Shown in pieces: positions 783 to 14,898 of a stretch of DNA of 14,898 nucleotides. The translations under genes were made by a program, and so were the position numbers. Positions within the stretch are counted from its first letter, which is position 1; each line of letters starts with the position of its first letter. The DNA lies in assembly GCA_030267965.1 (NCBI GenBank), contig BRYA01001053.1:1-14898 (forward strand), given 5' to 3'. The notes beneath the pieces are model-generated. The model had not been told where the DNA came from and searched no databases. It saw only the letters and a list, made by a program, of their open reading frames with translations. The DNA comes from Triparma columacea. Lineage: Eukaryota > Sar > Bolidophyceae > Parmales > Triparmaceae.

Positions 783-3700
783 TTAGCTTGTCTTTTCATG
801 GTGTGTATTTTTTTTAGTACCACCAGACGTTATATCAGGAGAGACTCTTTTAGTTACCATCAGGTTTTTGGTTCTCACTGATAGTCTCCTATTGGTCTCT
901 AATAACCTTTCTTTTGAAGATGGTATGAAGCTAATTGGTATCTTCCTCTGCATGGTTTCATCGAACCATTTTGGTTTCTCCTCATTCCATCTATCCCAGT
1001 TCAACTCTACCCAGGCCTTTACCTCCTCCTCAATAGAAAGCCAGAGTCTCTTCGAAACTCTAAAGACGTCAGCCTTATCATTATCGTTTTGTGCTTTCCG
1101 AAAGTCACTGCAATACATGTCTTTGGATCTAGTAGAATCCCAAAATGTTGCCAGATACTTGCGTTCAATAGAGGAGGCAAACAAAATAGCATTTATGAGT
1201 ACCACTGTGTAGAGAAGCAGTGCTCCTTGCAACGCCTGTCTAACTACTCTTTCCTTCCCACCTTGATTTTGATATATATAAATAACCGCAGGGAGGCCAG
1301 ATACAGTCAAGCATACACATATGCACCAGTACATGCCTCCCAGCTCCCCAGGATGTCTGAATTGAATCACCAAGGTGAAGTCAGTAACAACCTTCGTTAC
1401 TATTCTTGCAACTAGACTAGTATAGATTTCGAGATTTTCACCGGCAGGAACCCAGTACCAAAAGTCATCTCTTATAATTTTTTGAAGGAGGTACACACTC
1501 AAGTCGACCCCAAGGTACAGTGCTAACCACCGCTTGCCAATAAGAGACAGCAAAACAAGGGTGATGTTTTTGATGAGAAGCATAGCCGCAGAGAAAAAGA
1601 CCATTGCAGCAAATACAAGTGACCTCTTCCTAGGATTTGAAGGTACATAACCGTAGAAGTACTCGTTTTTGCTCCTTTTTATTGGATCGGTGTCATAGTC
1701 ATAACTGAGTACTGCTCCTGTGAGTCCTGTAGACAAAGCAGAGACTGAAAGGGAGAGCCATGCAGCTGTTGATGTTCCCTTGTCACTTGTTGCTATGGCA
1801 AGAACCTGGATAAAGGCCCCTGGTATGGATTCTGAGAATACTTCAGTGCACTTTGTGAATGTGAGCTCGGTTTGTGCGTCAAGCACCGCTGAAATGTGCG
1901 TCTTCTCCCCACTAGCAACTCTCTTTGCATCGAGTGCTGGCTTCAATCCAACAAGCACTGAGAATAACTCACGAACTATGATCTTCCAGCCTGATTTTTT
2001 GCACTGTATGATGGAGATGATTGCTTGAAGAAACAGTGAAGCACTGAGCATTCCAATCGTTGCATAAAAGTATCCCGTCCTGCCCTGCTCCCAGTACATG
2101 GCAGCGACGTATATATCTGTGATTTGGGTGAAGTTTGGGTAAAGAAAGGAGGTGTCGAACGCAGGGGGGCGTGAGTGGGGGGGCTTGTGCGAGCAGTCAT
2201 CTTATTGCTTCTCGCCCGCCCTTCCTCACCTGTCCATAAGTCCAACATTGATGTACCTGCACCAATCAGTACGCGAAACATCATGCCCCAAGGAGCTGCC
2301 TTCACAACACCCTCGGCAACCGAAAGAAACATTCCCTCCATCCAAGGATACTCCACAAACAGTTCGCTCACTGCCCTGTTCTGCAATCTCCAGGTGTCAA
2401 CCCCAGCTCCAATCACCTTCCTGCTCTTCAAGCATGGCATGAGGTTGTTCCCAATCACAGTGGCTTCATCCTCTTCCACACACTCTAGCTTGGTAGACAC
2501 GGCACTGTTGAAGGCAAAATTTGCAAGTCTTGCCCTCTTTAGAAGTGTAGGAAACCATGGGTATTTCTTCTGAACCTCCCTCAAAGCCACGCTCCTCAAA
2601 CACAGATCTTCAATGTGATCCTCTGTGATGTCTCTTTTATTCTTGCGTCCTAGCTGCCTGCCGTCCCAAATCATGTCAAAGCCTAGAGCCTCTCCTGCCT
2701 CAGTTGTCATCTCTTCCAACGGAATGAGGTACATGAAGTACCTTGCCGCCTCTGAGGCCTCAGCCAGAATTCTCTCAAGAGCTTGTTTGGTTGCCTCTTT
2801 GCTGACTCCCTTGCCAAGGTTGAGTCTGAGTGCAAAATCAACAAGCGTGTCATTCTCTCCCCTTCTCCTGATCCTAATAGCAACCTCCTCTTCAAATTTC
2901 TGAGTCCCTCTAGAATACTGGTTTGTAGTAGACCATGCGTCATCACTTTTTGATCCCCACTCGGTTTCCTCTGCACTTGGGTCCATGATAATAACAATGG
3001 TGTCCTTCTTTGTCTTGTTGAGCTGCATGGAGTAAGAATACTCCCTCTGAGTCGAGCCTACCTTCTGTATCTTCTTCACAGTCTGTCTCCATGGGTTCTT
3101 CTCGTCCACTTCCCTGTGGCTGTCTCCGGTAGATGATATGTTGATGCGACTGTCAAATTGCCAGAAATAGGCTGCAACTTCTTCGAAGCTTGCCCTGATT
3201 CTATATGATGTCTTCCCCTTCCCTTTTCCCTTCTCATCAACCTTGAGCCAAGTTTCTGCCAGGTAGACGGCAGAAGTCACAACTTCCTTGCCCTCGACGT
3301 CCACAAACCTGCTCTTGTAGCCACTTGCCCCTTGAGGCAGTGACACTTCGACCTTGAGAAGCCTCTTCTTTATCTCTGTCCTTCTCAGGGAATCCAAGAA
3401 AACGCTCTTGTCGTACTTCCGGCACATTGATAGCAAAAGACTGGCGAAGCTCTTCGAAGCATAACTCATAAAGATAGGGCTAGAAGCCACCACACCTTTC
3501 ATGTTATTCTGCCCAACCATTATGGCCTTACACTGTGGGATTCCGTTCTTGCTCGGGAGGGCTTGCAACTTCCAGACACTCCTAGAGTTCGCTCTTACGA
3601 CTCCGGCCTTCAAAGGAAAGTCCTTGTCTAGTCTATTAGTGTCTTCGTAGGTCAGCCAGATTGTCTTGCCGTCGTCTTCCTTCTTCCAAACGCAAAACCA

Positions 3701-6700
3701 TCTCCAATCCCTTGTACTCACACCAGGAATGCCAAAGTTTCGGCTGCTCTGATACAGCATGCTATGGTTGCTCAAGCTGACAATTTGCTGCTCCACAACT
3801 TTTCTCATCTTTAACACGGCTAGCTTGCTTCTGAGGTCCTTCTTCCAGATATAGGCTGCACATTCTTCGATAGGCACGTCAAAGAAGGCTTCTCCTATGC
3901 CTGAGGCTTGTTTGTCGCCCTTGACAGTTGTGGTCTTAACGGTGACTCTGGTATCTTCGTCTACTGCAAAGTCATCAAACTTTTGGCTTTTGAACCTGCA
4001 CTTCATGAAAAATTTCTTCCCCCTGTCAATGGCTTCTGTCTCCTCTGCAGTGAAGGTTTGTTCTTCCTGATTAATAATCCTAGCTAGGGAAGAAAGGTGG
4101 AACTCATCCACCTCCGTGCTTCTGTCAAAAGAGTTTCTGGCCTCATCTGCAAAGCCAAGAAGTTTTGGGAGGATGCGCTCTATAGTACTCTTTGGGATGT
4201 GGCCTTGAGCATTGCCATAGCAGAGGAACTCCATCTTGCACTGAGGTATGTTACCCAAACTCTTCACGTTGGTGCAAGTAAAAATCCCTTTAGTTTCGGC
4301 TCGAACGAGCCTGCCCATACCTCCACCATAGTCAATTTTTTCTCCTTCCGGAACGGAGAGGAGGGCAAGTGAGTAACCTCTATTCTCATTCTTTCTTAAT
4401 ATGCTCTTAAACACAACCTCTCGCTTGGCAACAGGGAAGGGAAAGTTCTTGATTGTGGCAAAGCGCCTTTCATTGAACCTGTCTTTGCCCTCTGAATCCA
4501 CAGGAAATCTAATATAGTTGCCTTCCTTCCTGTCAATGGCGATCCTTTCGTTGCTGCAGTAATCAAAAGCCCAGGCTGCAACTTCTGCAGCTGTTGAGTC
4601 AGCATATCCAATTGCTCTCCCCACAAGCGAAGTACTCTTGCCTTTCTGCTGGACTTGCTTCTTGAGCGCCATTGTGATGCCCTGAAAGGGTGAGTCTATG
4701 TGAACCCAGCTGTCCTCTGAGTCCCCAGGGTGGAAAAAGTCATGAAGGTTTTCGAAGACGTCAATTTGATCTTCTTCTACTCTGATCCCCTGCTCCATCT
4801 TTTCAGTCAGCTTCTTCCTGACCTCTGCATCTACCTTTGTGCCATTCCTCCTGTGTATGATATGACATGAATATAAGTTTGTGGTTTTAGTAAGGGTTGG
4901 TGATTACATATTTTTGTTCTCATTTTTCATTTCTTGTTGCCACGATTCTCACCTGTACCTCTCATAAAGCCTGTTAGCCATTTTGAGCTCGTTCCTGCTG
5001 ATCTTGTCTATGATGGTTTGGGGAAGGCTAACTTTTAGGTCAACTGTCTGGAGTCTAGTGACTCTGCAGGTGTTTTCAGAGATCTCTCTCAGCTTGTAGA
5101 ATCCGGATGTCACTCCTAGAACATAGCCTGGTGGTTGCTCTCCTAAACCCGAACCTTTGTAATCTCGGAGGGGCGTGAATGCAAGGGTGTAAACCTCTGT
5201 GCCTGTTTCTGGGTTAGTGTCCACTGTCCAGACCATCCAGATATCAAAGAGGCGTGATACATAAGGAGCAGGCAAATGCAAGCCAGTCCTATAGAACATG
5301 CTCCTTGTGCCGTCAACATTCTCCTTGGACATTCTTGGCAAGGGTGTTTTGCTATCTGCTCGAGTGTTTGAATGATCCCTGTTGTATGTTTGAAGCTGAC
5401 AAAGATAGGCCAAGATGGACTTAGCCGACGTGTCGACAACATTGCTGAAGGCTGCCCACACATTGTCCCCCTCTTTCCACAGGAACTTGTCAATGCCTTC
5501 CGTAGCAGTCCCCTTGACCCTCTTTCCTTTCTTCAGAAGCTGCTCTTCCAAGCCCTTCACCTGCCCCAGCATTTCTGTCTCCTGGCTTGTGAGGGCAGGC
5601 ACGTTGGGGATGACATGCTTTATGAAGCGAGCAAACCTCTTTTCGTCAATGACATCAGGTTTACTGAAGTGCTTCCCAATGGAGTCGAGGATGATGCTTT
5701 TGATGGAGGCGTAGGCAGTGGGAATGTTGGCCTTAATTGTCCCTTGCTTGCTATTGGACAGTGTGGAGCTCACTCTAGCCCACCTTTGCGGAGATGCTAT
5801 TGGTGCTCCTACCACTATCCCCGGTGCTAATGCCCTTGCTGTTGATTTTGCTGCTAATTGAGTACCAGGAATAGCAGTGCTGTCTATCGAGTGTTGTGTC
5901 TCTGCCTCCTCCAATTCACCAAGGAAGGTGACAGCAGCTTGATCAAACTCATAGCCAATTATTCTGATCTCCCCCTTAACAGTCGCCCTCTTTGCATTTG
6001 TGGTCCTAACAGAGGCCTCGAATTTGCTGAACGCGGTCCTTATCTCGGAGGGGAGATTCTGTGAGAAGAAGTATGACGAGCAAATGGGTTAGAACTGAGT
6101 TGTTCTCCAGAGGAGCTATTATTCTCAACATGACCCTCCTCCCTTGCACCTTCTTACCATCTCATCCACTGAGCTCAGCTTGATGGTGCACCCCTTGTCG
6201 GACGTGTTGGCTTCAATCTTGACATCCAGCAGGTACTCCACAACTATGTTGCCTTCTGCGCAGAAGTGCTGCCAGTACATCAATGAGTGGATTCCTTCTC
6301 TGTACTTGTGGATATACTGCCTTCTGAAAATGCCCTCTTTTTCTTCCTTCAGGAGAAGGAATTCGGCGACCAGCTCTGGCTTGTCGTGGACAATGAGTCC
6401 AACCTTTATCTTTCTAACCTCTTTGGTCTCCTCAAGAAGATCAGTTGTGACTCCTCTTTTGTGAAGCAAGGAAACGACATCAGAGTGAATACTTGGAGAT
6501 TTAGAGACTGCGAAGGAGACAACATTGTTGTAAAAGTGAGAAAAAACAACAAAGTTTCAACGCTTCCTCCCGCAACTCTTCCGCTCTCCCCTACAGTATT
6601 AAAATGCGTTTTTCTTTTCCGCCTCTCAATGCACAACTCACCTTGTCTCGCATCCTTGTGGCCGTTTTTAGAGTCTGCTGCGGTAATGGCGATTATGGTG

Positions 6701-9700
6701 TTTGTTAGTCAACATGGAAGAGATGTGAACGCGCGCTCCTTGTTTATGTGTAGCATATAAAGCGCCCCATGCGGTCGACGGAGATGGAACCCATGCGGTC
6801 GCCGCAGAAGCGCCCCATGCGGTTGCCATAGACGGAACCCACGAGGTCGCCAGAGACGGATCCAATGCGGTCGCCGCAGACCAGCACGCGCGCGCATGCG
6901 CTGCGGCTGCCCCCCGTCGAGCTCGCCGCCAAGGGCAAGGCCCTCCACAAACGGCTCCGCGCGTTCCGCACACAGGCGGTGACAAAAAACTACAAAGTTT
7001 CAACGCTTCCTCCCGCAACTCTTCCGCCCTCCCCTAGAGTATTAAAGTGTGTTTTTCTTTTCTGCCTCTCACCGCACAGCTCACCTCGTTTCGCGTTCTC
7101 GTGGCCGTTTTTAGAGTCTGCTGCGGTAATGGCGATTATGGTGTTTGTTAGTCAACATGAAGAGATTTCAACGCGCGCTCCTCGATTCCGTGTAGCATAT
7201 AAAGCGCCCCACGCGGTCGTCGCAGAAGCGCCCCATGCCGTCGCCGCAGACGGAACCCACGCGGTCGCCACAGATGGTTGCCGCAGACCAGCGCGCGCGC
7301 ATGTGCACTGTGGCCACCGCCCGTCGAGCCAGGCCCTCCGCAAACGGCTCCGCGCATTCCGCACACAGGCGGTGACAAAAACTACAAAGTTTCAACGCTT
7401 CCTCCCGCAACTCTTCCGCTCTCCCCTAGAGTATTAAAATGCGTTTTTCTTTTCCTTCTCTCACCGCACAACTCACCTTGTCCCGCGTCCTCGTGGCCGT
7501 TTTTAGAGTCTGCTGCGGTAATGGCGATTATGGTGTTTGTTAGTCAACATGAAGGTATTTGAACGCGTGCTCCTCGTTTCTGTGTAGCAATCGCAGACCG
7601 GCGCGCGTGCCTGTGGGTCGCGGGGGCTGACCGTCAAGCTCAACGCCGAGGGCCAGGCCCTCCGCAAACGGCTCCAAGCGTTCCGCACGCAGGCCGTGAG
7701 AAAAACTACAAAGTTTCAACGCTTCCTCCCGCAACTCTTCCGCTCTCCCCTAGAGTATTAAAATGCGTTTTTCTTTTCCCCCTCTCAACGCACAACTCAC
7801 CTCGTCTCGGGTCCTCGTGGCCGTTTTTAGAGTCTGCGGTAAATGGCGATCATGGTGTTTGTTAGTCAACATGGGAGAGATTTGAACGCGTGCTCCTTGT
7901 TTATGTGTAGCATATCAAGCGCAGTCGTGGTAGAAGCGCCCCATGCGGTCGCCGCAGAAGCGCACCATGGGGTCGCCGCAGACAGAACCCACGCGGTCAC
8001 CAGAGACGGATCCCATGTGGTCGCCGCAGACAAGCACGTGCGCGCATGCGCTGCGGCTGCCGCCCGTCGAGCTCGACGCCAAGGGCAAGGCCTTCCGCAA
8101 ACGGCTCCGCACGTTCCGCACGCAGGCCGTGAGAAAAACTACAAAGTTTCAACGCGCCCTCCCACGAATCTCCCGCTCTCCCCTAGAGTATTAATATGTA
8201 TTTTTCCTTTCTGGCGCTCAACGCACAACTCACCTTGTCCCGCGTCCTCATGACCATGTTCAGAGTCTGCTGCGGTAATGGCGATTATGGTGTTTGTTAG
8301 TCAACATGAAGAGGTTTCAACGCGTGCTCCTTGTTTATGTGTAGCACATCAAGCGCAGTCGTCGCAGAAGCGCCCCATGCGGTCGTCGCAAAAGCGCCCC
8401 ATGCGGTTGCCACAGACGGAACCCACACGGTCGCCAGAGACGGATCCCATGCGGTCGCAGTAGACCAGCCAATGCGCGTGTGCACCGTCGTCGCAGAAGC
8501 GCCCTATGCGGTCGTCGCAAAAGCGCCCCTTGCGGTCGCCGCAGACGGAACCCATGCGGTCGCCGCAGAAGCGCCCCATGCGGTCGCCGCAGACGGAACC
8601 CACGCAGTCGCCAGAGACGGATCCCATGCAGTTGCCGCAGACTGGGTCTCCCCTAGAGTATTGAAATGTATTCTTCTTTTCCGGCTCTCAACGCACAACT
8701 CACCTTGTCCTGCGTCCTTGTGGCCGTTTTTGGAGTCTGCGGTAATGGCGATTATGGTGTTTGTTATGTTAGTCAACATGAAGAGATTTCAACGCGTGCT
8801 CCTCGTTTCTGTGTAGCATATCAAGCGCCCCACGCGGTCGACGGAGATGGAACCCAAGCGGTCGCCGCAGAAGCGCCCCATGCGGTCGCCGCAGAAGCGC
8901 CCCATGCGGTCGCCGCAGACGGAACCTTTGCAGTTGCCGCAGACGGAACCCACGCAGTCGCCAGAGACGGATCCCATGCGGTCGCCGCAGACCGGCGCGC
9001 GCACACGTGCGCCGCAGCCGCCGCCCGTCGAGCTCGACGCCGAGGGCCAGGCCCTCCGCGAATGGCTCCGCACGTTCCGCACGCAGGCGGTGAGAAAAAC
9101 TACAAGGGTCTCCCCCCCTGCGACTCCCTGAATCGAACTTACCTTGGTCTTGTCCAGCGTCCTCATGAGAGCTTTTAGATTTAGAGACTGTGAAGGGGAC
9201 GACACAACACATTGCAAAAGTGAGCAAAAAATACAAAGCTTCAACGCGCCCTCCCGCGACTCTCCCGCTCTCCCCTAGAGTATCAAATTGTCTTTTCTCT
9301 CTTCTGCCGCTCAACGCACAACTCACCTTGTCCTGCGTCCTTGTGGCCGTTTTTGGAGTCTGCGGTAATGGCGATTATGGTGTTTGTTAGTCAACATGAC
9401 ATGAAGAGGTTTCAACACGTGCCCTTGTTTATGTGTAGCACATCAAGCGCAGTCGTCGCAGAAGCGCCCCATGCGGTCGCCGCAGACGGAACCCACGCAT
9501 TCGCCGCAGACGGATCCCATGCGGTCGCCGCAGACCGGCGCGCACGCATGTGCACTGTGGCCACCGCCCGTCGAGCTCGACGCCAAGGGCCAGGCTCTCC
9601 GCAAACGGCTCCGCGCGTTCCGCACGCAGGCGGTGACAAAAAACTACAAAGTTTCAACGCGCCCTCCCACGACTCTCCCGCTCTCCCCTACAGTATTAAA

Positions 9701-10494
9701 ATGCGTTTTCTTTTCCCCCTCTCACCGCACAACTCACCTTGTCCCGCGTCCTCGTGGTCGTTTTTAGAGTCTGCGGTAATGGCGATTATGGTGTTTGTTA
9801 GTCAACGCGTGCTCCTCGATTCCGTGTAGAATATCAAGGGTCTCCCCCTCTACCACCCCCTGAAAGGAACTTACCTCGGTCTCGTCCAGCGTCCCGGTGA
9901 GAGCTTCTAGATTTAGCGACTGGGACAACATTGGTGTAAAAGTGAGAAAAAACTACAAAGAGTCAACGCACCCTCCCACGACTCTCCTGCTCTCCCCTAG
10001 AGTACTAAAATGCGTTTTCTTTTCCGCCTCTCATCGCACAACTCACCTCGTCCGTCGTCCTCATGACCATTTTCAGAGGCTGGTGGTTTGACGTCTTCAT
10101 TTGTGTATTTTTGCGAGGATGCGGATGTGGAAGGGAGGGTCTCTGAGAGGGGTAGTGCCGGATTTTTCGTCTCGTCTTCTCGCACTGAATTGTCCCCGTC
10201 AGCGGTGGCAGGAACTGCTCCAGGAAGCGACCCCCCTAGCTCGGTGGTGAGTATTTCATTTCCACCCTCGTTGCTCCCCTCTATCTCTTTGATTATTTCA
10301 TCGTCGTGTGTCTTTATGGCTGCTAGTATTTCGTCGTTCTCCCTCTTGAGACTCTCGTTCCGTTGTCTATAAACCTCGACGATTATGTTGTCAGGAGGTG
10401 CGACCTTTCCGGCACATTGACCATCCAAAAGGGAGTCGTTGAGGTCTTTGAGCCGGCGATTTTCGAGCCGCAGGGCCTCGACGTTCATGTCCAT
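783..10494 (-). CDS. Multi-exon protein: coiled coil, microexon-encoded repeats, START-like domains, polytopic membrane C-terminus
   Basis: Proposed join on the minus strand: 10494-10047, ten microexons (separate entries), 6507-6158, 6058-4953, 4850-2230, 2116-783. The phases agree at every junction and the total is 6225 nt, or 2074 residues. Residues 1-60 look like a coiled coil (ALRLENRRLKDLNDSLL). An acidic, Ser/Pro-rich linker follows, then the repeats at about 150-271. Residues 272-388 are a conserved-looking segment without an assignment. START-like segments lie at about 575-756, 811-1000, 1032-1244 and 1269-1470. The C-terminal part from about 1590 has some six to eight hydrophobic helices, for example 1646-1668, 1748-1768, 1795-1812, 1891-1912 and 1924-1946. 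The 113-nt intron 2117-2229 rebuilds the continuous segment MLDLWTDIYVAAMYWEQG. START folds bind lipids in known families; lipid sensing or transfer at a membrane is inference. I took ATG 10494 because its context is aacATGG and there is no in-frame ATG just upstream. Two separate genes are less likely, since the 4953/4850 junction joins smoothly (ERYR|RNGTK). Confidence 0.8.
6642..6677 (-). other. Candidate microexon 10 (36 nt, type A, CAGCAG acceptor)
   Basis: Acceptor CCGCAG followed by CAG, donor GTGAGT, branch-like GTTGACTAAC. Adds ADSKNGHKDARQ. The next intron, 6508-6641, is 134 nt, lacks the GC-rich insert and leads to the large exon at 6507. Confidence 0.62.
7085..7120 (-). other. Candidate microexon 9 (36 nt, type A, CAGCAG acceptor)
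   Basis: Acceptor CCGCAG followed by CAG. The donor is GTGAGC, the only type A copy that is not GTGAGT. Adds ADSKNGHENAKR. Confidence 0.58.
7477..7512 (-). other. Candidate microexon 8 (36 nt, type A, CAGCAG acceptor)
   Basis: Acceptor CCGCAG followed by CAG, donor GTGAGT, branch-like GTTGACTAAC. Adds ADSKNGHEDAGQ, the consensus form. Confidence 0.62.
7801..7833 (-). other. Candidate microexon 7 (33 nt, type A)
   Basis: Acceptor TTACCGCAG, donor GTGAGT, branch-like GTTGACTAAC. Adds DSKNGHEDPRR, so this copy has drifted at its end (PRR for AGQ) while keeping its length and splice sites. Confidence 0.6.
8234..8269 (-). other. Candidate microexon 6 (36 nt, type A, CAGCAG acceptor)
   Basis: Acceptor CCGCAG followed by CAG, donor GTGAGT, branch-like GTTGACTAAC. 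Adds ADSEHGHEDAGQ. The core GAACATGGTCATGAGGAC is the closest of all copies to the 3' end of exon 1. Confidence 0.62.
8355..8640. repeat. 24-bp GC-rich minisatellite, longest block
   Basis: Consecutive 24-base monomers of three related kinds follow each other here: gcggtcgccgcagaagcgcc plus ccat, gcggtcgccgcagacggaac plus ccac, and gcggtcgccagagacggatc plus ccat. Shorter blocks with the same monomers lie at about 6757-6880, 7206-7280, 7930-8030, 8826-8995 and 9449-9535. Because 24 is a multiple of three, every frame tends to stay open, giving 8-residue repeats such as AVAADGTH on plus and CGDRMGRF on minus. I read these ORFs as by-products of the repeat. Confidence 0.85.
8704..8736 (-). other. 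Candidate microexon 5 (33 nt, type A)
   Basis: Acceptor ACCGCAG, donor GTGAGT. The branch-like GTTGACTAAC is kept although a six-base insertion lies between it and the acceptor. Adds DSKNGHKDAGQ. Confidence 0.62.
8820..9092 (+). repeat. GC-rich intron insert with a coding-like plus-strand segment
   Basis: This is the clearest example of an insert that recurs at about 6745-6985, 7200-7372, 7570-7698, 7910-8131 and 9440-9635. The minisatellite leads into a non-repetitive segment that on the plus strand reads PPPVELDAEGQALREWL and then RTFRTQAV, with G or C at most third positions. It ends at GGTGAG, which resembles a plus-strand donor. The copy at 8345-8642 lacks this segment. It may be a captured gene fragment lying antisense to the host gene, or a GC-rich mobile element; neither can be decided here. 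Confidence 0.5.
9143..9187 (-). other. Candidate microexon 4 (45 nt, type B)
   Basis: Acceptor CCCCTTCACAG, donor GTAAGTTCG. Adds VSKSKSSHEDAGQDQ. Its first 11 nt are identical to the first 11 nt of the exon that starts at 6507. Confidence 0.62.
9327..9359 (-). other. Candidate microexon 3 (33 nt, type A)
   Basis: Acceptor ACCGCAG, donor GTGAGT, branch-like GTTGACTAAC. Adds DSKNGHKDAGQ. Its nucleotide sequence is identical to microexon 5. Confidence 0.62.
9738..9770 (-). other. Candidate microexon 2 (33 nt, type A)
   Basis: Acceptor ACCGCAG, donor GTGAGT, branch-like GTTGACTAAC upstream. Adds DSKNDHEDAGQ. The intron before it is only 104 nt and lacks the GC-rich insert. Confidence 0.62.
9875..9919 (-). 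other. Candidate microexon 1 (45 nt, type B)
   Basis: Preceded by acceptor TTGTCCCAG and followed by donor GTAAGT. Entered in phase 1 it adds VAKSRSSHRDAGRDR. Its first bases resemble the start of the exon at 6507, and its end resembles the other microexons. Confidence 0.6.
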
Positions 10495-13399: not shown

Positions 13400-14340
13400 A
13401 TGCATCTTACTCGCTTCCTTCAACGTAGTACTCCCTTCCTTGCATCTCGAGCATCATCTTCCCCTCTATCATCTAATCTTAACCCTAACTTTAGCCGTAT
13501 TACATCACTTTATAGCACTAGAATGTATAGCAACCAAATAGGCGTCGACGTGGAGGGATGCAAAGAGGCATTAAGGAATGCTGACGCTGTTTGTTTCGGT
13601 AAGATTTACAACTAAAACCTACCAATCATAACAACAAACAAAAGCCGTACACACAAACCCTAACACACACACACTTAAACCCCCCTCCCCCCCCACACCC
13701 AGACGTTGATAGCACGGTAATAAACGAAGAAGGCATCGACGTCCTCGCCGATTACCTCGGCAAGGGTCCCCAGGTCTCAGAGTGGACCGCGAAAGCCATG
13801 GGTGGAAACGTGAAGTTTGAGGACGCCCTTGCTGCCCGTCTCTCTCTCATAGAACCCAGCAGGTCAAGCATTCTTAAATGCATTTCGGAACGTCCCTTCA
13901 AGTTAACCCCCGGTATCGCGGGGTTGATAAAAGCACTCCACGACAAGGGTGTGGACGTGTGGTTCGTATCAGGTGGTTTCCGTATAATGATAGAGCCCAT
14001 AGCTACCGTACTATCCGTTCCTACCTCAAACATACTCGCAAACACCATACTATTCAAAGACGATGAGGAGGGTACGTATAAAGGGTTCGATGACAAAGAA
14101 CCAACATCAGCGGACATGGGTAAACCCCGTGCAGTCCGTTTCATCAAATCCACAACCGCAGCCACCACCGTAGTAATGGTAGGTGACGGTGCGACGGACT
14201 TACAGGCCGTAGCTCCCGGTGCGGCTGATAAGTTCCTAGGGTTCGGGGGAGTGGCGGATAGGGATGTTGTTAGGGAGAAGGCTGATTGGTTCGTTTATAA
14301 CTTTGATGAGGTTACTAAAATCGTTAAAGGGTTAGACTAG
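13400..14340 (+). CDS. PSPH: Phosphoserine phosphatase (two exons)
   Basis: Catalyses O-phosphoserine + water to L-serine + phosphate, the last step of the phosphorylated serine pathway. Join 13400-13598, 13703-14340; 278 residues. HAD-family motifs are all present: the nucleophile motif DVDST (residues 67-71), SGGF, a Lys near KPRAVRF, and MVGDGATD. The neighbouring MGG and LTPGI segments fit the eukaryotic family closely. About 55 extra N-terminal residues come before ADAVCF; the first 42 are rich in Ser and Arg with almost no acidic residues, so a mitochondrial targeting peptide is likely. A second Met at residue 42 could give a cytosolic form. No signal peptide with an ASAF-type motif is evident, so plastid import is not supported. 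The 104-nt intron (GTAAGA to CCCAG) splits the codon of the catalytic Asp (G|AC). Confidence 0.93.
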
Positions 14341-14377
14341 TTGGGGGACTAGGGGTAACTCCCACACCCCCCCCATC

Positions 14378-14543
14378 ATGGTTGGTTGACGGTGCTACGG
14401 ACGCACAGGCTGTTGCGGAGGGGGCGGCTGATAAGTTCCTGGGGTTCGGGGGGGTGGAGGATAGGGATGTTGTTAGGGAGAAGGCTGATTGGTTCGTTTA
14501 TAACTTTGATGAGGTTACTAAAATCGTTAAAGGGTTAGACTAG
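14378..14543 (+). pseudogene. Partial tandem copy of the PSPH 3' end, frameshifted
   Basis: Matches the last 165 bases of PSPH from the Met of MVGDGATD to the stop, with one inserted T after ATGGTTGGT that breaks the frame. The last 100 bases or so are nearly identical to the parent, while the first 45 differ more. The catalytic nucleophile half is absent, so it cannot make an active phosphatase by itself. No acceptor AG lies at its left edge, so use as an alternative last exon is not supported. Confidence 0.85.
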
Positions 14544-14581
14544 TTGGGGGGACTAGGGGTACTCCCACCCCCCCCCACGTC

Positions 14582-14746
14582 ATGGTTGGTGATGGTGCAA
14601 CGGACGCACAGGCTGTAGTTGAGGGGGCGGCTGATAAGTTTATAGGGTTCGGGGGAGTGGCGGATAGGGGTGTTGTTAGGGAGAAGGCTGATTGGTTCGT
14701 TTATAACTTTGATGAGGTTACTCAAATCGTTAAAGGGTTAGACTAG
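14582..14746 (+). pseudogene. Second partial tandem copy of the PSPH 3' end, frame open
   Basis: Exactly 165 bases with an open frame from MVGDGATD to KGLD and stop. It differs from the parent at, for example, AQAVVEG for LQAVAPG, FIGF for FLGF, and TQIV for TKIV. It shares ACGGACGCACAGGCTGT with the other copy and not with the parent, so the two copies probably share a more recent ancestor or are converting one another. Confidence 0.85.
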
Positions 14747-14898
14747 GGGAGGGACTAGGGGAGATGGAGCGGGGGGGGGAGGGGGGTTTATGAATACTGG
14801 TTTGTGACGATTTGACGCAGTCCCGACGCAGGGCGACGAGATGGATGAGTGAGCAGAGTTTGCGTCTAGGGAGAGGGGGTGCGTGGTTGGGGGGGAGA
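14747..14898. other. G-rich flank without recognisable gene
   Basis: Contains G9 and G6 runs and a short non-repetitive stretch. No ORF with family resemblance, RNA gene or repeat unit of the upstream PSPH array continues here. Confidence 0.5.

What the first reader, a model, noticed from the sequence alone, without database searches (positions are those of the whole stretch)
6508..10046. Array of ten phase-symmetric microexons (33/36/45 nt) created by tandem exon-intron amplification
What looks like a satellite in a long intron reads on the minus strand as ten small exons with consensus donors (GTGAGT, one GTGAGC, GTAAGT), acceptors (CCGCAG, TTCACAG, CCCAG) and, for type A, a TGACTAAC branch site. 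Every exon length is a multiple of three, every exon is phase 1 at both ends, none has a stop, and each joins in frame to exon 1 and to the exon at 6507. Together they encode a 122-residue hydrophilic repeat between coiled coil and START-like body. Any subset can be skipped without frameshift, giving a length-adjustable linker by splicing or by copy-number change.
Basis: partly seen in the sequence, partly recalled or inferred. Interest (0 to 1): 0.9.

Follow-up and report, generated by a model that had tools for sequence, protein, structure and literature searches.

The report
Microexon array joins swappable gene halves
Inside one gene lie ten tiny repeated exon-like segments, and copies of the same array sit between different front and back halves in dozens of related genes; because the joins share one reading phase, the array would likely let halves be swapped, or the predicted linker lengthened, without breaking the protein, although the splicing itself is only predicted.

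Summary
On the minus strand ten 33/36/45-nt segments with donor and acceptor sites lie between exon 1 (10494-10047) and exon 2 (6507-6158). All are phase 1-1 and all 1024 subsets join in frame.

The genome gave a test. The unit or its acceptor motif occurs on at least 86 contigs. In 39 loci an exon finder that left length free gave 213 microexons: all are multiples of three, none has a stop, while the introns between them show no such rule. Type A has pN/pS 0.30 in the predicted frame and about 1 in the others. So they are very likely coding. No transcript or spliced copy was found.

New: the array sits between seven head classes (six clusters) and six body starts, in 13 combinations. In five of eight different-head pairs the longest body match begins inside the array. 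Array introns average 85% identity even where bodies are 20-35% identical. I read it as a phase-locked recombination zone that also encodes a variable linker. Closest known: 90-bp exon arrays of Tetrahymena LRR genes.

The parts
10047..10494 (-). Exon 1 (448 nt, ends phase 1): head; its last 33 nt resemble a fused type A copy
   Evidence: environmental relatives P0002, P0003 keep this frame
9875..9919 (-). microexon 1, type B, 45 nt
9738..9770 (-). microexon 2, type A, 33 nt
9327..9359 (-). microexon 3, type A, 33 nt
9143..9187 (-). microexon 4, type B, 45 nt
8704..8736 (-). microexon 5, type A, 33 nt
8234..8269 (-). microexon 6, type A, 36 nt (or 33, CAG|CAG acceptor)
7801..7833 (-). microexon 7, type A, 33 nt
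7477..7512 (-). microexon 8, type A, 36 nt (or 33)
7085..7120 (-). microexon 9, type A, 36 nt (or 33), donor GTGAGC
6642..6677 (-). microexon 10, type A, 36 nt (or 33)
6158..6507 (-). Exon 2 (350 nt), start of the body; its first bases resemble type B
   Evidence: 31-39% identical to bodies of other array genes in the rows printed
4953..6058 (-). Exon 3 (predicted)
2230..4850 (-). Exon 4 (predicted), member of a large family in this genome
783..2116 (-). Exon 5 (predicted), XK-related membrane domain, stop codon
   Evidence: (PF09815, E 6.3e-07, above cut-off)

Best explanation
The ten segments are predicted to be spliced as phase-1 microexons that encode a hydrophilic linker, and the array they form likely works as a phase-locked recombination zone in which genes near chromosome ends would exchange heads, bodies and linker units without losing the reading frame. 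Shown: the same kind of array, with 2 to 11 microexons found per locus and four types in all, lies between different heads and body starts in many paralogs; every length found is a multiple of three; type A carries a coding signature; in several gene pairs homology begins inside the array. Inferred: that the exons are spliced, that the exchange is by ectopic recombination or gene conversion, and that linker length matters to the membrane protein. How it would work: each unit carries its own donor, acceptor and, for type A, a branch-like motif, so unequal crossing-over in the array yields a gene that is still in frame, whatever the partner genes and whatever the resulting unit number.
For: 1) 213 of 213 microexons in 39 loci are 33, 36, 39 or 45 nt, 0 stops; the 174 introns between them are 61/64/49 for remainder 0/1/2. 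Six further loci (L049-L054): 25 of 25 are 33 or 45 nt, no stop. 2) Type A pN/pS 0.30 in the predicted frame against 0.98 and 1.08 in the other two, 107 distinct sequences. 3) Nine of 81 acceptor hits in the fetched loci and window have no donor in place but run on into the body frame, i.e. a type A copy fused in frame to the body. 4) Body frames are fixed by their own open frames. Head frames: phase 1 and a tail motif were conditions of my search (head found in 27 of 39 loci), so the independent support is that 20 of 20 environmental head proteins that I read keep the same frame up to the donor. 5) The window gene's other introns have phases 0, 2, 1. 6) Thirteen head-body combinations among 35 loci with both assigned (of 39). 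L012/L014: bodies 84% identical, heads without a match; L009/L015: 82%; L039/L044: heads 88%, bodies 31%. Of 13 pairs that I chose, 8 differ in head class: in 5 (L012/L014, L009/L015, L015/L025, L011/L026, L033/L036) no head match exists and the longest body match begins inside the array; the 5 same-head pairs match from about 520-800 nt upstream into the array. 7) A-B introns average 0.85, 0.88, 0.89, 0.88, 0.86 (best intron pair per locus pair) for bodies at 20-35, 35-45, 45-60, 60-80 and over 80% identity (264 pairs, 28 loci). 8) 38 of 38 fetched arrays lie within 15 kb of the contig end towards which the gene reads; C2, C29, C34, C52 carry array and TTAGGG repeats 7-11 kb apart.
Against: No transcript. 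None of 88 database proteins shows a microexon-microexon junction by a regular expression; of the 21 of 88 that I read, P0001 is a body piece and the other 20 are DNA-type frames running from the head into the intron. No spliced retrocopy in the own genome (150 of 161 candidates scored). Types B and C show no clear frame signal (B 0.58, 1.20, 0.58; C 0.77, 0.57, 0.96; the script stopped at D); the codon-position entropy test is borderline (p 0.047 for all, 0.054 for distinct sequences). Array and body divergence are weakly correlated (Spearman 0.20, Mantel p 0.06). In 3 of the 8 different-head pairs the longest body match begins 88-950 nt after the array (L012/L032, L016/L019, L013/L036), and a longest-match start is not a mapped breakpoint. 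Head classes I and III fall in one cluster at 45% identity. Bodies are related beyond their starts: 35 of 36 form one cluster at 50%, the window alone apart. The window's own head (VI) and body start (g) were used as queries and occur once each, so this very gene is not itself shown to be a recombinant. Loci were chosen by similarity to the window's unit, pairs are not independent, and assembly may miscount units. Two labels (L022, L034) disagree with the first residues seen.
Confidence: 0.55

Rival explanations
1. Passive by-product: the microexons are real and spliced, but unit number and head-body mixing are neutral results of ordinary gene conversion among gene copies near chromosome ends, tolerated because the frame is never broken; the array has no role in promoting exchange.
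For: The encoded peptide is bland and hydrophilic (49 of 122 residues D/E/K/R, 2 of 122 V/I/L/M/F/W/C). Body DNA also matches at 81% or more in long stretches in most of the ten pairs compared, which I had chosen mostly for similar bodies. In 3 of 8 different-head pairs the longest body match begins after the array.
Against: In 5 of 8 different-head pairs it begins inside the array; array identity hardly falls with body identity. Both facts fit this rival as well if the array is simply the longest shared repeat.
Confidence: 0.3
2. Splicing-tuned linker: cells skip subsets of microexons to make isoforms with linkers of different length, as in titin PEVK or schistosome MEG proteins.
For: All 1024 subsets are in frame; four window exons have tandem CAG|CAG acceptors; 33-nt exons are short for exon recognition (general knowledge).
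Against: No isoform evidence at all; splice signals are uniform across units, which fits constitutive inclusion.
Confidence: 0.2
3. Non-coding satellite of an intron: the exon-like segments are conserved for another reason (a DNA element or splicing decoys) and the real transcript joins exon 1 to exon 2.
For: The 30 nt before the type A acceptor are more alike between units (0.82) than third codon positions (0.73), and the first 17 nt after the donor are nearly fixed; 24-nt minisatellites lie in most introns that lead into type A.
Against: Frame-specific pN/pS in type A, 213 of 213 multiples of three, in-frame fusion of type A copies to bodies and to exon 1.
Confidence: 0.06

Closest known systems
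Tetrahymena LRR genes with 90-bp exon arrays (PMC6564038; abstract and passages seen)
   Same: Many equal-length tandem exons in one intron phase, clonal expansion of exon-intron units, young copies concentrated near chromosome ends and centromeres, exon shuffling by unequal or ectopic crossing-over proposed, exon number varies between close paralogs.
   Different: 90 bp, phase 2 and a leucine-rich repeat there; 33-45 nt, phase 1 and a hydrophilic linker here. Here the array sits between exchangeable heads and body starts. RNA-seq support exists there, none here.
Schistosoma micro-exon genes (MEG) (PMC10526429; start of abstract, passages)
   Same: Short exons, mostly multiples of three, separated by longer introns, gene family.
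   Different: [quoted passage not shown] here 366 of 6225 coding nt are microexons in a large protein with an XK-related end.
Aphid bicycle genes (PMC9168663; passages seen)
   Same: Many small internal exons of one phase in a fast-evolving family.
   Different: Phase 2 there, about 17 exons on average with unusually small internal ones; the passages do not speak of recent copies of one exon-intron unit.
Plasmodium knowlesi SICAvar genes (PMC5798397; passages seen)
   Same: Large multi-exon family, partly subtelomeric, repeat-laden introns, exon shuffling and recombination proposed.
   Different: No short phase-symmetric exon array in the passages that I saw.
Titin PEVK exons (PMC7274174, PMC6300359; search listing only)
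   Same: Spring-like spacer whose length depends on which exons are present.
   Different: One muscle gene; no exchange between genes (recalled).

Membership tests
Tetrahymena-type LRR 90-bp exon array | exons of exactly 90 bp | tested here: not met
   33, 36, 39 or 45 nt
Tetrahymena-type LRR 90-bp exon array | introns in phase 2 | tested here: not met
   phase 1 for all eleven introns that touch a window microexon
Tetrahymena-type LRR 90-bp exon array | one phase and cloned exon-intron units near chromosome ends | tested here: met
   TTAGGG repeats seen on 4 of 14 array contigs in the listed range; works alike, not a member
Schistosome MEG | gene composed of microexons | tested here: not met
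   366 of 6225 coding nt
Schistosome MEG | short exons, mostly multiples of three | tested here: met
Schistosome MEG | differential splicing shown in transcripts | not testable with these tools
   no RNA data
Schistosome MEG | secreted protein with signal peptide | not tested
   no signal-peptide predictor was run
XK-related protein (PF09815) | profile match above curated cut-off | tested here: met
   29.1 bits against 24.8, E 6.3e-07, exon 5
START domain protein (PF01852) | profile match above curated cut-off | tested here: inconclusive
   none in the window stretches scanned; sub-threshold in 3 of 10 proteins given (E 8.5e-4 to 7.5e-3); no PDB match; model too poor to use (pLDDT 32.5)

The most novel reading that the evidence does not exclude
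A genome-wide adaptor: one phase-1 microexon array, carried at many chromosome ends, is a universal in-frame joint through which a large membrane-protein family builds new genes from interchangeable heads and bodies, with linker length set by unit copy number; each unit brings its own splice sites, so a crossover inside the array still makes an open gene.
Probability: 0.4. Interest if true: 0.8.

Novelty: new variant of a known kind. Interest (0 to 1): 0.62.

Why it matters
If transcripts confirm it, this is another case, in what may well be a quite different lineage from the ciliates, of a gene family near chromosome ends that uses tandem exons of one phase as raw material. It adds something not described in the passages that I saw on the known cases: the array is a joint between exchangeable gene halves. 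It gives a concrete test of whether intron phase symmetry is kept for frame-safe recombination rather than for alternative splicing. It also warns annotators: each microexon is 33-45 nt between introns of about 100-580 nt and is easily missed.

Tried and rejected
RNA evidence: three protein searches gave 88 proteins, none with a microexon-microexon junction by a regular expression; I read 21 of the 88 letter by letter. Spliced retrocopy: none. Virus contigs: 0 exact matches to one 23-base pattern. START fold: no PDB match; the AlphaFold model with a two-row alignment is unusable, so no fold search was made. Local amplification as the sole origin: rejected, 7 of 128 units have their nearest relative in the same locus, 3.5 expected by the script. 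Organism: not named by any tool. I suspect a parmalean alga (Triparma and kin: 31.0-43.6 Mb genomes, scaffold N50 above 60 kb in five of eight, START genes enriched; PMC10328945 passages; the short genome note PMC7427184 read whole), but 37.85 Mb in 789 contigs matches no row of that Table 1, so this stays a guess. Literature: eight searches; no row listed there concerns such arrays in stramenopiles. The lists were short (at most 15 rows), so this is a statement about those rows only.
Full report
What is there. The gene is on the minus strand. My model has 15 exons, 6225 coding nt and 2074 residues: exon 1 at 10494-10047, ten microexons, exon 2 at 6507-6158, exon 3 at 6058-4953, exon 4 at 4850-2230, exon 5 at 2116-783. 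All eleven introns that touch a microexon are in phase 1; the other three are in phases 0, 2 and 1. Ten of the eleven array introns hold a stop in the incoming frame and the last one has none but is not a multiple of three, so retention would end or shift the protein while skipping never does: all 1024 subsets are open. Exon 5 matches XK-related proteins (PF09815). The body pieces given to and one search have no PDB relative; START is only hinted at in some paralogs.

Is it more than chance? The own genome answers. The type A acceptor motif (35 nt) occurs 85 times on one strand and 111 on the other with up to three mismatches, none for the reversed control. together place the unit or this motif on at least 86 contigs (only 100 of the 196 motif places are listed); one search counted 386 first-look candidates for one 85-nt unit, of which it scored 40. 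I fetched 38 loci. An exon finder that asked for an acceptor, a donor and a 3' end like the consensus, with lengths from 27 to 51 nt free, gave 213 microexons in 39 loci, the window included: A33 123, A36 5, B45 43, B39 3, B33 15, C33 14, D33 10; all are multiples of three, none has a stop; the finder misses the window's first type B exon. Antisense and reversed sequence gave none. The 174 introns between the microexons are 61, 64 and 49 for remainders 0, 1, 2. Because the exons are paralogous, the independent length events are few: a 3-nt difference within A and 6-nt and 12-nt differences within B, all of them multiples of three. Six loci not used before gave 25 of 25 at 33 or 45 nt.

Coding signature. 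Among 107 distinct type A exons pN/pS is 0.30 in the predicted frame and 0.98 and 1.08 in the others. Types B (0.58, 1.20, 0.58) and C (0.77, 0.57, 0.96) do not single out the frame, and D was not computed. Entropy is 0.46, 0.30 and 0.65 at codon positions 1, 2, 3, permutation p 0.047 (0.054 on distinct sequences). In nine of 81 acceptor hits the type A copy has no donor in place and runs on; in the translations these read DSENGHEDAVGLVADSN or nearly so in eight loci and DSKNGLATVSHAT in one, within open frames of 195 to 933 codons. Exon 1 of the window ends in a type A-like copy (31 of 33 nt against the consensus) followed by a type A-like intron start. The repeat is thus part of unbroken coding sequence on both sides of the array.

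Heads and bodies. I sorted first exons into seven classes and body starts into six; at 45% identity classes I and III join, leaving six head clusters, and the bodies beyond their starts are related, 35 of 36 in one cluster at 50% with the window apart. In one search a phase 1 end and a tail motif were conditions of the head search, so that call does not test the head phase; the 20 environmental head proteins that I read do, and agree. Of 39 loci, 35 had both parts assigned by best tblastn match: I-a 9, I-b 2, I-c 4, I-f 2, II-b 6, II-d 3, III-a 2, III-b 1, IV-a 2, IV-f 1, V-c 1, VI-g 1 (the window), VII-a 1; four lacked one (L020, L024, L027, L040). L012 and L014 have bodies 84% identical and heads without a match; L039 and L044 the reverse (heads 88%, bodies 31%). 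DNA comparison of 13 pairs of my choice: of 8 pairs with different heads, 5 (L012/L014, L009/L015, L015/L025, L011/L026, L033/L036) show no head match and a longest body match that begins inside the array; in 3 (L012/L032, L016/L019, L013/L036) it begins 88-950 nt after the array; the 5 same-head pairs match from 519-797 nt upstream into the array.

Array against body. The short A-B introns are 0.77-0.97 identical between loci (mean of the best 0.88). Their mean hardly changes with body identity: 0.85, 0.88, 0.89, 0.88, 0.86 for bodies at 20-35, 35-45, 45-60, 60-80 and over 80% (n = 25, 49, 67, 113, 10). Spearman 0.20, Mantel p 0.06, so some link may remain. The simplest reading is that arrays are exchanged or converted among genes whose bodies are old and diverged.

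Place in the genome. All 38 fetched arrays lie within 15 kb (median 7.2 kb, one match position taken per locus) of the contig end towards which the gene reads. TTAGGG arrays probably mark chromosome ends: in the listed part (contigs up to C70), 4 of the 14 array-bearing contigs known to me have them, 7-11 kb from the array. The window's own contig start shows no such tandem repeat.

How it likely works. Shown: repeated units with splice sites, phase 1, frame keeping, mixing of heads and body starts. Inferred: splicing; exchange by ectopic recombination near chromosome ends; a flexible linker (49 of 122 residues charged). Each unit is self-contained, so crossing-over in any register gives an open frame, and the number of units can drift. 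Whether this property was selected, or is just tolerated, I cannot tell; that is the difference between my best explanation and the first rival.

Relation to what is known. The nearest published case that I saw is the Tetrahymena LRR family with tens of thousands of 90-bp exons between phase 2 introns, young copies near chromosome ends and centromeres, and exon shuffling proposed by its authors (PMC6564038, abstract and passages). It is the same kind of thing, not the same family: length, phase, encoded motif and the head-body joint differ. Schistosome MEG and aphid bicycle genes share short exons, bicycle genes also one phase. I therefore file it as a new variant of a known kind.

Noticed in passing
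6766-9535 (long array introns); 38 fetched loci and window: A GC-rich 24-nt minisatellite sits in introns that lead into a type A exon (93 of 105) and in none of the 69 introns that lead into B or C; its copy number goes with intron length in A-A introns (r 0.87).
   Followed up: partly
donor and acceptor flanks of type A microexons: About 30 nt before the acceptor and 17 nt after the donor are conserved beyond ordinary splice signals, more than third codon positions; possible splicing enhancers for 33-nt exons.
   Followed up: partly
8269-8234, 7512-7477, 7120-7085, 6677-6642: Tandem CAG|CAG acceptors in four window exons and one in L018, none in the other 208 of 213; the nearest relatives of the 6677 unit are on C715 (98%) and within the window (96%), a trace of recent copying within and between loci.
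   Followed up: partly
genome G000, e.g. C70: C70 bears outward TTAGGG arrays at 4-63 and at 75420-75461, and several other listed contigs bear one at their start: the genome may consist of many small chromosomes. Length of C70 was not looked up.
   Followed up: no
14176-14761: The 3' end of a HAD-hydrolase gene (phosphatase-like) on the plus strand is repeated 2.9 times with a 203-bp period.
   Followed up: no
164-333: A 12-nt tandem repeat (14 copies) near the contig start, not the canonical telomere repeat.
   Followed up: no
P0002-P0088: Relatives of heads I, II and VI occur in contigs from sources marked ena, jgi and lgn; some (P0005, P0013) read from the head through a short intron into a type A microexon, so the arrangement exists outside this genome.
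   Followed up: partly
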